DNA of 64,000 nt from Fidelibacterota bacterium (GTDB lineage: Bacteria; Fidelibacterota; Marinisomatia; SCGC-AAA003-L08; TS1B11): contig SCKJ01000002.1 in NCBI GenBank assembly GCA_004124875.1, positions 248,001 through 312,000 of the forward strand. Direction: 5' to 3'. The translations under genes and the position numbers were made by a program. Positions 8,443-11,405 of the stretch are shown here, in pieces. The notes below the pieces were generated by a model. The model was given only the letters and a program-made list of their open reading frames with translations, was not told the DNA's origin and did not search any database. Positions within the stretch are counted from its first letter, which is position 1; every line of letters begins with the position of its first letter.

Positions 8443-10176
8443 ATGATTTCGTCCCTCACTTCACGGTTTGTCGCCGCCATTGTCAATTCGATGCGCAGGA
8501 GCTTTGCCAACGTCGCTCCGTTCCTCACGATTGCGGCCCTCATGAGCATTGCCGGGCAGATCGGCTTTTACTTCATCTGGACTTATGTCTTCCCCCAACC
8601 GTATGAAAATTTTACCCTGCGGCTGCTGGGGGCGCTCCTGTCGCTCCCCCTCGTATTCTGGCGTCGCTGGCCGGCAGGGGCCATCCGCTTTCGGCCACTC
8701 TATTTTCATGTTGTGGTGCTGTACCATCTTCCGTTCATATTCCTCTACTTCCTGGTGCGCAACGACTTCAATCTCATCTGGGTTCTCTCCTCCCTGGGGG
8801 CGGCCTTTGTGCTCACCTTTTTAATAGAGTGGCGCGCCGTTGGCATGCTGTACCTCGTGGGGGCCCTGGGCTGGAAGTCCCTTGAAAAGATGATACCCCC
8901 GCATGCGATATCCACGGATTTGACCTCTTATGTGGCGGTCCTGCTGTTTCCCCTCTCTTTCGGGGCCATTTTCAGTTACCAGCTGACCCGCTACAGGGAA
9001 GCCCAGCAAACGCTACACAGCAGAATCCGCAAAATATCGGATGAAAATGCCCGCATGATCAATGAGCAGAATCAGCTGTTCAGCCTTTTCGTCAGCAACA
9101 GCATTGTGCTGCGGCTGCGCCAGTTTCAAGCAAAGTTTGGTCTGGAGAAAGCCATCTCCATGATCACCCGGCAGGAGCAGCGTTTTTGCGGCATCATGGA
9201 AGCCGACATCCGCAATTTTACCCAGATGCTGGGACGCGAGTCAGAGCAGAAAGTGGCCCAGCTTATCAGCCGCTGCTTCCGTGATATTACTTCCGTCGGG
9301 CAAGACCTGTCGGTCGTCAAACCTGTGGGCGACAGTCTGTTTATTTACACCGATGACAGCAAGGGCCGGGAGTTGGCCGTCACCAATGTGCTGGCCCTGG
9401 CCATCCTGTTCGTGCAGTCGCTCGAGGAAATCAACCGGATCATCATTCTGGAGCAGGGCGCGCCGCTCAATTTCGGCATTGCCGTTCACGCCGGGAACGC
9501 CGTGTACGGCAATCTGGCCAGCGATACGCTTATTGATCCGACGATCATTGGTCTGAATGTCAATCTAACCGCCCGGCTCGAAGAGCTGACCAAGGCTCCT
9601 GCCCTGCAGAATATCATTGGCCCCAACGCTATTTTGATCACCCCGGAGGCGGCGACGTATTGCCACAAACTAGTAGGCCGGCACCGTCTTATGGCCATCG
9701 ACCTGCCGGAAATGGGACTGTCGGTCAGGGACTTCCCCGAAATTGACCAGATATTTGCCCTGTCGAGCGCTTCAGCGGCCACCCTCTTTAACCAGGCAGC
9801 GATGCATGTCCGGCAGCAGCGCGAGAAATTGTCGGAAAGCGGCTCAGGTGTGGAAGCGGGCCGCTATCACGACATCCCTTACTATTATGAATCCCAAGGC
9901 AGTGGTCCCGATACCAGTTGGACCATACTTATCGATTTTGGCGACCTGTCCGGACGCGTTCTGGAAGACTATGCCGCGGGGCACTTAAACGATATGGTTT
10001 ACGATATTCAGGAGGGCGATACTCAGCGGATCGTCCTCTCCACCGCAAATACTCCCGGCAGGTATGATGAAAACGATGTCGAAATGAAAGTGCGGTCCGT
10101 CATCCGGGGGATGGAGCCCATGCTCGCCGCTGCCCGAAACCGGGCCGTCAAACCTGCGCCCATTGCCAGGGCCTAG
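8443..10176 (+). CDS. CqsS-like membrane sensor fused to class III adenylate/guanylate cyclase
   Basis: 577 residues from ATG 8443, which has purine-rich GGATGGGGAAA just upstream; the GTG at 8398 adds 15 residues but lacks a ribosome site. Residues 25-185 hold about six membrane helices that match, from memory, the sensor half of Vibrio CqsS: GFYFIWTYVFPQPYEN against CqsS YYFIWEYWFPQSYEN, and LPF...NDFNLIW against LPF...NDWSTIW. The CqsS ligand-pocket residues W104 and S107 align with W113 and S116; C170 aligns with F177. A short coiled coil (185-215) leads to a class III cyclase domain. Its two metal aspartates are D255 (ADIRNFT) and D297 (VKPVGDS), with K293 as the base-binding lysine and N374 and R378 (NLTARLE) as transition-state residues, so the domain looks active. 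About 130 C-terminal residues are unassigned. There is no histidine-kinase domain. The gene is convergent with the CqsA-like synthase, 11 bp away. Product cAMP or cGMP cannot be decided. Confidence 0.85.
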   Translation: MISSLTSRFVAAIVNSMRRSFANVAPFLTIAALMSIAGQIGFYFIWTYVFPQPYENFTLRLLGALLSLPLVFWRRWPAGAIRFRPLYFHVVVLYHLPFIFLYFLVRNDFNLIWVLSSLGAAFVLTFLIEWRAVGMLYLVGALGWKSLEKMIPPHAISTDLTSYVAVLLFPLSFGAIFSYQLTRYREAQQTLHSRIRKISDENARMINEQNQLFSLFVSNSIVLRLRQFQAKFGLEKAISMITRQEQRFCGIMEADIRNFTQMLGRESEQKVAQLISRCFRDITSVGQDLSVVKPVGDSLFIYTDDSKGRELAVTNVLALAILFVQSLEEINRIIILEQGAPLNFGIAVHAGNAVYGNLASDTLIDPTIIGLNVNLTARLEELTKAPALQNIIGPNAILITPEAATYCHKLVGRHRLMAIDLPEMGLSVRDFPEIDQIFALSSASAATLFNQAAMHVRQQREKLSESGSGVEAGRYHDIPYYYESQGSGPDTSWTILIDFGDLSGRVLEDYAAGHLNDMVYDIQEGDTQRIVLSTANTPGRYDENDVEMKVRSVIRGMEPMLAAARNRAVKPAPIARA

Positions 10177-10187
10177 TGGCGTCCGGT

Positions 10188-11405
10188 TCAGCTGCGGGGC
10201 ACTGGCCAGAGTTGCGGCTCAACTTCCGGGGCAATTTCTGCGCATACATCAATGACGCGGTCGAGCTGGCTTTGTGTCAGGTTGCCATGCAGCGAAAATC
10301 GCACCAGCGACCGTTTCCTGCCAGTTGCGGGCCAACAAAATACCGATCCAAATACGCCCCGTTTTTCGAGGACATCCCGGAGCCGAATGGTGCGGCCATC
10401 TGCCCCCGAAACCAGGCTGATGATCTGGCTCTGGCTGGCAGACACGTTGTATCCGGCGGCTGCAAGACCTTCGCGCAGGTAGTCCGCTTTCGCCTGTAAC
10501 TCTGCCCGCATGAGCGCCGCCCCTGCTACGATCTCCTGCGTCGCCAGAAAACCTGCCGCCTCATGATCCATGACTGAGGATGAGAATATGGCCGGCCGGG
10601 CGTTGTAGCGGAAATACTCCAGGTTCTCACTCGATCCGATGATAATGCCGCCGCGGGAGGCAAATGTCTTTGATAGACTGGCGGTGATAAAATCGACCTG
10701 ATCCTGCAAGTTCAGCGCCGCTACCATGCCCGCTCCCATGGGCCCGAACAGCCCGAGTGAGTGCGATTCATCCACCACCAGTATGGCGCCGTAGCGGCTG
10801 GAGACTTCAGCCATATCGGCCAACGGAGCGACAGACCCGCTCGTGCTGTAGACGGAATCGATAGCGATGATGCCGGGACCATGCCGCTTGAGCATGTTTT
10901 CCAGCGATTGGGCGCTGTTATGCCTGAAAGGCCTCGGTTTGGCCTGGGCACTGTGCGTCCCTTCCCACAGGGACATATGCGCCTCCATATCGAGGTAGAC
11001 CGGCACCTGCTTATCGGCCAGCGCCTGAATCAGTCCCACGTTGGCGTTCCAACCCGACTGCGTGAGCAATGCGGACGGCATGCCTGTCCACTGCGCCATC
11101 CTCTGCTCAAAACTGGCCAATGGACCCAGTTCATGGCGGAAGACATCGGAGCGCATGAGACCACGGCCCTGTTCGACGAGGTAATCCGCCTGCGCCCGGG
11201 TGACCACGGGGTTGGCGGCAAGGCACAAGTAGTCGTTGGAGCTGAGGATGATGGCTCCGTCACCGGGGATACCGCCTTGCAGAATATGACTGCCGTGCCC
11301 CATGGCCCGCTGGCGATAGTCGGCTATTTTCGCGGATAGAAATACCGGCGGCCCCGGCACAGTGCCCGCCGAAATGTCTCGAAATAGTTGTTCCGTATTC
11401 CCCAT
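10188..11405 (-). CDS. cqsA: CqsA-type alpha-hydroxyketone autoinducer synthase
   Basis: 405 residues from ATG 11405, which has GGAGGA six nt upstream; the open frame runs on to 11507 without support. It is a PLP-dependent alpha-oxoamine synthase. H143 (EAHMSLWEG) should stack on PLP, D212 and H215 lie in VDESHSLG, and K246 (TASLSKTF) is the Schiff-base lysine. What separates it from 8-amino-7-oxononanoate synthase (BioF) and KBL is a set of CqsA/LqsA signatures: LLTQSGWNANVG, AHMSLWEG, KRHGPGII, RPAIFSSSV and RGVFGSVFCWPAT. In vibrios CqsA condenses an acyl-CoA with S-adenosylmethionine or 2-aminobutyrate on the way to CAI-1; the substrates here are unknown. No biotin genes are nearby. The neighbour is a CqsS-like receptor, as in the vibrio cqsA-cqsS locus, which supports a signalling role. 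Confidence 0.85.
   Translation of the reverse strand: MGNTEQLFRDISAGTVPGPPVFLSAKIADYRQRAMGHGSHILQGGIPGDGAIILSSNDYLCLAANPVVTRAQADYLVEQGRGLMRSDVFRHELGPLASFEQRMAQWTGMPSALLTQSGWNANVGLIQALADKQVPVYLDMEAHMSLWEGTHSAQAKPRPFRHNSAQSLENMLKRHGPGIIAIDSVYSTSGSVAPLADMAEVSSRYGAILVVDESHSLGLFGPMGAGMVAALNLQDQVDFITASLSKTFASRGGIIIGSSENLEYFRYNARPAIFSSSVMDHEAAGFLATQEIVAGAALMRAELQAKADYLREGLAAAGYNVSASQSQIISLVSGADGRTIRLRDVLEKRGVFGSVFCWPATGRKRSLVRFSLHGNLTQSQLDRVIDVCAEIAPEVEPQLWPVPRS

What the first reader, a model, noticed from the sequence alone, without database searches (positions are those of the whole stretch)
8443..11405. CqsA-type autoinducer synthase beside a CqsS-like receptor fused to a nucleotide cyclase
The minus-strand gene carries the CqsA/LqsA-specific blocks (SGWNANVG, AHMSLWEG, RGVFGSVFC) and full PLP active-site residues. 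The convergent plus-strand gene has a membrane half that matches the CqsS sensor half (FIWTYVFPQPYEN, NDFNLIW) but ends in a class III cyclase domain with both metal Asp, the base-binding Lys and the Asn/Arg pair intact. In vibrios the CqsS output is a histidine kinase and phosphorelay. A direct link from an alpha-hydroxyketone signal to a cyclic nucleotide would be a new kind of quorum-sensing circuit. The CqsS comparison was made from memory of the Vibrio sequence.
Basis: partly seen in the sequence, partly recalled or inferred. Interest (0 to 1): 0.95.

Follow-up and report, generated by a model that had tools for sequence, protein, structure and literature searches.

The report
Quorum-sensing receptor fused to cyclase
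A Fidelibacterota genome carries, tail to tail, a gene from the family that makes the quorum-sensing signal of Vibrio and a gene for a membrane receptor that shares the sensing half of the Vibrio receptor CqsS but ends in a cyclic-nucleotide-making domain instead of a kinase, so the cell-density signal would likely set the level of a second messenger (predicted to be cAMP) through a single protein.

Summary
Window 11405-10188 (-) encodes a CqsA/LqsA-type alpha-hydroxyketone (AHK) synthase: NF005526, 500 bits, cut-off 428. Window 8443-10176 (+) encodes a six-helix sensor homologous to CqsS kinases (kinase-receptor profile 138 bits, best of 5000 shuffles 14) joined to a class III cyclase with all six catalytic or base-reading positions intact. 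It is not a one-off. In Fidelibacterota the synthase and the sensor-cyclase occur in the same 7 of 245 genomes, always as convergent neighbours; in the SAR324 phylum in the same 4 of 52 (neighbours in 3); two betaproteobacterial loci have the pair. No kinase-type CqsS and no LqsR regulator was detected in the 11 genomes of the window's family. Cyclase-partnered synthases, plus one SAR324 synthase whose cyclase is unlinked, form one clade (100/98); the cyclase-linked sensors are one side of a branch (100/99). The best reading is a natural AHK-gated adenylyl cyclase that replaces the kinase phosphorelay. Beltz et al. (2016) built such a chimera (CqsS-Rv1625c) and describe the CqsS cluster of their survey as His-kinases; in my searches I found no report of a natural one. 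The ligand, cAMP as product, and the sign of the response are untested.

The parts
8443..10176 (+). receptor gene: CqsS-type sensor fused to a class III cyclase, 577 aa
8464..9015 (+). six-helix CqsS-type sensor (residues 8-191); W113, S116, F169, F173, F177 correspond to V. cholerae CqsS W104, S107, F162, F166, C170; L167 to F160
   Evidence: kinase-receptor profile aligns residues 8-191; V. campbellii alignment; residue counts; CqsS residue roles from PMC3376566 section 11
9016..9171 (+). linking helix between sensor and cyclase (residues 192-243), continuous with TM6 in the low-confidence model
   Evidence: model helix 158-232, pLDDT under 50 in 202-221; alignment
9172..9594 (+). class III nucleotide cyclase core (residues 244-384): metal Asp D255 and D297, base-reading K293 and T367, N374 and R378
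   Evidence: PF00211; alignment to solved adenylate cyclases CyaB 3r5g and 2w01; invariance
9790..10149 (+). C-terminal domain (residues 450-569), conserved in the family, no Pfam match
10177..10187 (.). 11-bp gap between the two convergent stop codons
10188..11405 (-). CqsA/LqsA-type AHK autoinducer synthase, 405 aa; PLP lysine K246
   Evidence: NF005526 500.5 bits; PDB CAI-1 synthases; tree

Best explanation
The two convergent genes encode a CqsA-family synthase and a protein that joins a CqsS-type six-helix sensor to a class III cyclase; the synthase is predicted to make an alpha-hydroxy- or amino-ketone from a medium-chain acyl-CoA, which would likely bind the sensor and directly change cAMP output, replacing the histidine-kinase phosphorelay. 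Shown here: both family assignments, intact catalytic positions, conservation of the CqsS ligand-determining tryptophan and of one gatekeeper phenylalanine, recurrence of the pair, and no detectable kinase-type CqsS or LqsR in the family genomes. Inferred: the chemical signal; that it is this receptor's ligand (F177 matches the V. harveyi-type residue and suggests a tail of about 8-10 carbons); that the receptor works as a dimer and passes the change through the TM6 helix to the cyclase; that the product is cAMP; and that ligand raises activity, as in the CqsS-Rv1625c chimera. Effectors would be cyclic-nucleotide-binding proteins such as the two CRP-like regulators elsewhere in the genome.
For: Synthase: NF005526 500.5 bits over cut-off 428; 7 of 9 acyl-pocket residues listed for V. 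cholerae CqsA (PMC3285556, passages) are identical, V32 and F257 being L42 and Y267, read by hand from the alignment. Sensor. In 14 cyclase receptors W113 is 14, S116 11 S + 3 T, F169 14; in 51 kinase receptors W 49, S 50, F 51. Cyclase: six catalytic positions invariant, aligned with solved adenylate cyclases. Pairing: same 7 of 245 Fidelibacterota genomes, convergent neighbours in 7 of 7, in two different gene neighbourhoods and inverted as a unit in G189; same 4 of 52 SAR324 genomes. A profile of 28 kinase-type sensors finds one match in each of these 7 family genomes, the cyclase, and none in the other 4. LqsR: 0 of 11 family genomes and 0 of 6 genomes of the outside loci; the 3 control genomes ring, as they must, since their LqsR are in the alignment. 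Trees: synthase clade 100/98, sensors 100/100, membrane part only 100/99. Precedent: CqsS-Rv1625c chimera stimulated by CAI-1, best joint at Ala181, which corresponds to residue 192 here, where the CqsS similarity ends (191).
Against: No experiment exists for this pair. Identity to the V. campbellii sensor is only 27%; the gatekeeper F160 is L167, and positions 167, 173 and 177 vary among the cyclase receptors. The cyclase scores modestly (30 bits) and positions 142-183 of PF00211 are not matched. The genome has 14 other PF00211 matches, so this would be one of several cyclic-nucleotide sources. In one SAR324 genome the synthase has kinase- and receiver-like stretches within about 4 kb and the CqsS-cyclase lies on another contig. 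One betaproteobacterial genome holds a second CqsS-cyclase with no synthase in the 10 kb read. A search from a Chlorobi-type kinase sensor listed 114 proteins and no cyclase. The model is poor (pLDDT 67, pTM 0.38). Pair conservation shows functional linkage, not that the product is the ligand.
Confidence: 0.73

Rival explanations
1. The receptor senses another lipid or the state of the membrane, and the neighbouring synthase serves a different function; the genes travel together for another reason.
For: Direct ligand binding is untested. One SAR324 genome has the two genes apart and one extra CqsS-cyclase lacks a synthase in the 10 kb read.
Against: Same 7 of 245 and same 4 of 52 genomes hold both; the cyclase is the only CqsS-type sensor detected in the family genomes; CqsS ligand-determining W113 and F169 are 14 of 14; synthase and sensor distances correlate (r 0.84, 62 loci; 0.78, 12 cyclase loci), though shared descent alone would give that.
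Confidence: 0.15
2. The cyclase makes cGMP, or both cyclic nucleotides, instead of cAMP.
For: Specificity was judged from two positions only, by a rule that I recall; Pfam's model covers both adenylate and guanylate cyclases.
Against: K293 and T367 are invariant and the closest solved relatives are named adenylate cyclases; the best, CyaB, has the same Lys/Thr pattern in the printed alignment.
Confidence: 0.1
3. The cyclase domain is degenerate and acts as a binding or dimerisation module.
For: Low PF00211 score and unmatched last part of the profile.
Against: All six catalytic or base-reading positions are invariant across Fidelibacterota, SAR324 and Betaproteobacteria, unlikely under decay.
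Confidence: 0.05
4. Artefact: misassembly or contamination joining two unrelated genes.
For: The loci come from MAGs or other uncultured-bacterium assemblies, by their titles.
Against: The same gene pair and the same fusion recur in 12 loci counting the window, two of them in genomes held as one contig, G185 and G187.
Confidence: 0.01

Closest known systems
CqsA/CqsS of Vibrio
   Same: Synthase family; six-helix sensor with FPQPYEN and W..S blocks; convergent neighbour genes (V. campbellii)
   Different: CqsS ends in a histidine kinase plus receiver and acts by phosphorelay; here a class III cyclase follows the sensor and no kinase part is found
LqsA/LqsR/LqsS of Legionella and relatives
   Same: AHK synthase and homologous sensor; convergent order in several loci
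   Different: LqsS is a kinase and LqsR is present: an LqsR-like ORF lies in 27 of 80 synthase loci but in 0 of 11 cyclase loci
Engineered CqsS-Rv1625c chimera (Beltz et al. 2016, PMC4821796)
   Same: CqsS sensor driving a class III adenylate cyclase; comparable joint
   Different: Laboratory construct with a class IIIa mycobacterial cyclase; here natural, with a class IIIb-like cyclase, an extra C-terminal domain and its own synthase next door. Their survey of 1616 6TM modules (outliers removed) describes the CqsS cluster as sensory His-kinases
RpfF/RpfR (BDSF)
   Same: Quorum-signal synthase paired with a receptor that is itself a second-messenger enzyme
   Different: PAS-domain receptor, fatty-acid signal, c-di-GMP turnover (PMC6361424, passages)
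Class III adenylate cyclases with 6TM anchors (Rv1625c/Cya and others)
   Same: Six-helix anchor, helix, catalytic domain
   Different: Their anchors are described as orphan receptors (PMC4821796); this anchor is homologous to a receptor with a known ligand class

Membership tests
AHK autoinducer synthase (CqsA/LqsA, NF005526) | Score above the curated family cut-off | tested here: met
   500.5 bits, cut-off 428
AHK autoinducer synthase (CqsA/LqsA, NF005526) | PLP lysine and acyl-pocket residues of CqsA | tested here: met
   K236 to K246; 7 of 9 pocket residues identical, V32 to L42, F257 to Y267 (alignment read by hand; pocket list from PMC3285556; the role of K236 is recalled)
AHK autoinducer synthase (CqsA/LqsA, NF005526) | Groups inside the family, not with BioF/KBL | tested here: met
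   Tree of 82 rows, but with a single, very long outgroup row; family scores agree
AHK autoinducer synthase (CqsA/LqsA, NF005526) | Makes an alpha-hydroxy- or amino-ketone | not testable with these tools
   needs chemistry
CqsS/LqsS receptor | Homologous six-helix sensor | tested here: met
CqsS/LqsS receptor | Ligand-determining residues W104, S107, F160, F162, F166, C170 | tested here: met
   4 of 6 identical to V. cholerae (W113, S116, F169, F173); C170 is F177 as in V. harveyi; F160 is L167, a difference
CqsS/LqsS receptor | Histidine kinase output | tested here: not met
   only PF00211 in the protein at E up to 1
CqsS/LqsS receptor | Gene beside the AHK synthase | tested here: met
CqsS/LqsS receptor | Binds the AHK | not testable with these tools
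   needs assay
Class III nucleotide cyclase | PF00211 above the curated cut-off | tested here: met
   30 bits, cut-off 21.9
Class III nucleotide cyclase | Two metal Asp, base-reading pair, Asn/Arg | tested here: met
   D255, D297, K293/T367, N374, R378 invariant; the roles are recalled
Class III nucleotide cyclase | Makes cAMP | not testable with these tools
   predicted from the K/T pair, a recalled rule
Lqs system | LqsR response regulator | tested here: not met
   0 of 11 family genomes at E 1e-20; the search works on 3 of 3 control genomes

The most novel reading that the evidence does not exclude
A natural quorum-sensing circuit in which an alpha-hydroxyketone pheromone directly gates a membrane adenylyl cyclase made as one protein with the CqsS sensor. 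It would have arisen by a single swap of kinase for cyclase and travelled as a two-gene cassette between Fidelibacterota, SAR324 and Betaproteobacteria. It would be a natural class III cyclase whose six-helix anchor comes with a candidate ligand made next door.
Probability: 0.65. Interest if true: 0.93.

Novelty: new variant of a known kind. Interest (0 to 1): 0.88.

Why it matters
What the membrane anchors of class III adenylyl cyclases sense is called unknown in the 2016 and 2022 eLife papers (PMC4821796, section 6; PMC9433096, listed abstract) and a blind spot in a 2025 review (PMC12414865, title and passages), where the proof of concept cited for a receptor role is engineered CqsS chimeras. 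Here nature appears to have made the same kind of construct, kept in several lineages and mostly beside the gene for the likely ligand, so the question becomes directly testable. It would also give AHK quorum sensing a second output type without a phosphorelay, and would link cell density to cAMP in poorly cultured lineages.

Tried and rejected
Considered and rejected: synthase as BioF/KBL; CqsS resemblance as membrane-composition chance (shuffles; in stretches of about 3.5 kb around 8 of the 14 other own-genome cyclase matches, L001-L008, no frame scored above 0 with the kinase-receptor profile, but the stretches may cut off N-termini); a second, kinase-type CqsS or an LqsR in the genome; tree signal driven by the linker (membrane part only).

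Led nowhere or limited: the structure model from 15 sequences is poor and I draw no fold conclusion from it. A better alignment of 82 sequences (A3) could not be folded. The third protein search, from a Chlorobi-type hybrid kinase sensor, listed 114 proteins, none with a cyclase domain, so the link was visible from nearer sensors only. Promoter and terminator counts are close to those of shuffles. Of one search's two papers I checked one, which does not mention CqsA, CqsS or CAI-1. Rows dropped: two split kinase sensors (L063, L078) were left out of the sensor trees. 17 of 80 synthase loci had no CqsS-type receptor by my profile; in 9 of them the contig ends within 0.9 kb of the synthase's 3' end, one of these (L097) showing the start of a kinase-type sensor. 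The LqsR profile was built from 7 ORFs of which one (L045) was probably the wrong frame; the alignment used for the genome searches (A6) leaves it out.
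Full report
What is there. The window lies in a 3.0-Mb genome of 17 contigs. At 8443-10176 (+) is a 577-aa protein, at 11405-10188 (-) a 405-aa protein; the genes converge with 11 bp between the stops.

Synthase. It scores 500.5 bits against NF005526 (cut-off 428), more than twice any other model listed, BioF, KBL and serine palmitoyltransferase included. Its nearest solved relatives are CAI-1 synthase chains. 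The PLP lysine is K246. Of nine acyl-pocket residues named for V. cholerae CqsA in PMC3285556 (passages), seven are identical (H40, F89, I273, F274, C357, P359, A360) and two differ (L42 for V32, Y267 for F257); I read this by hand from the alignment.

Receptor, sensor half. A search of 5.8 billion proteins with residues 1-235 listed 16 proteins: 11 carry a cyclase domain and 5 are kinases, two of them named CqsS by their source. The reverse search from an Alcanivorax kinase sensor listed 92 proteins, itself included: 87 with a kinase ATPase domain, 4 with a cyclase domain, 1 with no domain given. A third search from a Chlorobi-type sensor listed 114, none with a cyclase domain. A V. campbellii gene from a public record without annotation, which I take for CqsS because it is a kinase-receiver protein beside a CqsA-type gene, matches the sensor half at 66.9 bits, best of 5000 shuffles 13.3; a profile of 203 kinase-type relatives gives 137.7, best shuffle 14.2. 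In it a Phe stands at 166 and Val172, Ala181 and Gly185 fall where PMC4821796 (section 6) puts them in V. harveyi CqsS, which fixes the numbering: W113, S116, L167, F169, F173, F177 here correspond to V. cholerae W104, S107, F160, F162, F166, C170, whose ligand roles are reviewed in PMC3376566 (section 11 read). In 14 cyclase receptors W113 and F169 are invariant and S116 is S (11) or T (3); in 51 kinase receptors W is 49, S 50, F 51. The other positions vary: 173 is F in 8 of 14 cyclase receptors and mostly G or A in kinases; 177 is F 5, V 4, I 3, L 2 in the cyclase receptors. F177 of the window is the V. harveyi-type residue at the tail-length position, which suggests a tail of about C8-C10; this is an inference.

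Receptor, output half. PF00211 matches residues 244-384. Metal Asp D255 and D297, base-reading K293 and T367, and N374 and R378 are invariant in 15 sequences and in 11 diverse ones, and align with solved adenylate cyclases such as CyaB 3r5g. The K/T pair is that of class IIIb adenylyl cyclases, a rule that I recall, as are the roles of the six residues. No kinase domain is found. Residues 450-569 form a conserved C-terminal part without a Pfam match. The CqsS similarity ends at residue 191; the best engineered joint in CqsS-Rv1625c, Ala181, corresponds to residue 192. Alignment ends are soft, so this is suggestive only.

Recurrence. In 245 Fidelibacterota genomes the synthase is in 7 (E 1e-90) and the sensor-cyclase in 7 (E 1e-5), the same 7, all in one family of 11. 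In all 7 the genes are convergent neighbours, overlapping by 4-60 bp or 11 bp apart. They sit in two neighbourhoods: one in the window's genus, another shared by the other three genera, where the pair is inverted as a unit in G189. In 52 genomes of the SAR324 phylum both are in the same 4; in three they are neighbours; in the fourth the synthase has kinase- and receiver-like stretches within about 4 kb and the sensor-cyclase is on another contig. The phylum grouping is that of the genome set; NCBI puts Candidatus Lambdaproteobacteria in Pseudomonadota. Genomes are related, so the counts are not independent events. A scan of the species-genome collection with the synthase alignment found 252 relatives; the best 80 were kept, so counts lean towards relatives of the query. 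Of these 80, 11 have a CqsS-sensor cyclase, 52 a CqsS-sensor kinase, 17 neither by my profile. The 11 are six Fidelibacterota (L030-L035, the same genomes as above), three of the SAR324 phylum (L036, L038, L044) and two Betaproteobacteria by title (L042, L050). All 11 are convergent neighbours, overlapping by up to 60 bp or up to 150 bp apart.

Circuit. A profile of 28 kinase-type sensors finds exactly one match in each of the 7 family genomes, the cyclase receptor, and none in the other 4. LqsR-like ORFs occur in 27 of 80 synthase loci and in 0 of the 11 cyclase loci, some of which are short. A genome-wide search at E 1e-20 finds none in 11 family genomes, none in the 6 genomes of L036, L037, L038, L042, L044 and L050, and one in each of 3 control genomes, whose own LqsR are in the alignment. 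The window's genome has 6 cyclic-nucleotide-binding proteins over the Pfam cut-off, two with a CRP-like DNA-binding domain, which are candidate effectors, and 14 further PF00211 matches.

History. In a tree of 82 synthases the 12 cyclase-partnered rows plus the SAR324 row with an unlinked cyclase form one clade (100/98), with Betaproteobacteria, SAR324 and Fidelibacterota together; its sister is a set of four kinase-partnered rows (99/95 for the union). The outgroup is one very long row, so the root is weak, and several rows have long branches. In a tree of 65 sensors the 14 cyclase-linked ones are one side of a branch (100/100; membrane part only 100/99); that tree is unrooted. This fits one swap of output domain followed by transfer of the pair. 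Synthase and sensor distances correlate (r 0.84 for 62 loci, 0.78 for the 12 cyclase loci), which shared descent would also give.

Against print. Searches: CqsS with adenylate cyclase (15 papers), CqsA with LqsA and hydroxyketone, quorum sensing with hydroxyketone and cyclase, Marinimicrobia with quorum sensing and autoinducer, LqsS with cyclase, two of CqsS, sensor domain and domain architecture (12 of 323 listed), SAR324 with CqsA, cyclase anchor terms (7 listed). I saw these listings; sections of PMC4821796 (6 and 9, plus passages) and PMC3376566 (11, plus passages); and passages of PMC3285556, PMC8895600, PMC12414865, PMC7843935, PMC3310172 and PMC6361424. None of what I saw reports a natural CqsS-cyclase. 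PMC4821796 describes its CqsS cluster as sensory His-kinases and its cyclase anchors as separate clusters, outliers removed, and PMC12414865 still cites the synthetic chimera. The library holds open-licence papers only, so a report elsewhere cannot be excluded.

Verdict. Observation confirmed; interpretation supported as far as sequence can go. The gating of the cyclase by the neighbour's product, the cAMP product and the sign of the response remain inferred.

Noticed in passing
L063:3514-7227, L075:2150-5896, L065:5128-8730: AHK synthase fused behind an MMPL-type exporter domain in proteobacterial MAGs (frames of 1201-1249 aa), in the clade next to the cyclase-partnered synthases; a built-in signal exporter would be an unusual arrangement.
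   Followed up: partly
L088:2274-5303: AHK synthase domain fused to NB-ARC and tetratricopeptide repeats in one 1010-aa frame of a Cellvibrionaceae MAG.
   Followed up: partly
window 9790-10149 (receptor residues 450-569): Conserved C-terminal domain of the CqsS-cyclases with no Pfam match; Y480, G486, G488 and W493 are invariant in 11 receptors.
   Followed up: partly
L129:4948-6705: Second, divergent CqsS-sensor cyclase in the genome of L050 (titled uncultured beta proteobacterium), without a synthase in the 10 kb read.
   Followed up: partly
L037 and L128: SAR324-phylum genome whose AHK synthase has kinase- and receiver-like stretches nearby while its CqsS-cyclase is on another contig.
   Followed up: partly
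G000:C7:7064-7594 (L001): One PF00211 match of the genome scores 216 bits, far above the 14 others, the next being 85; not examined further.
   Followed up: no
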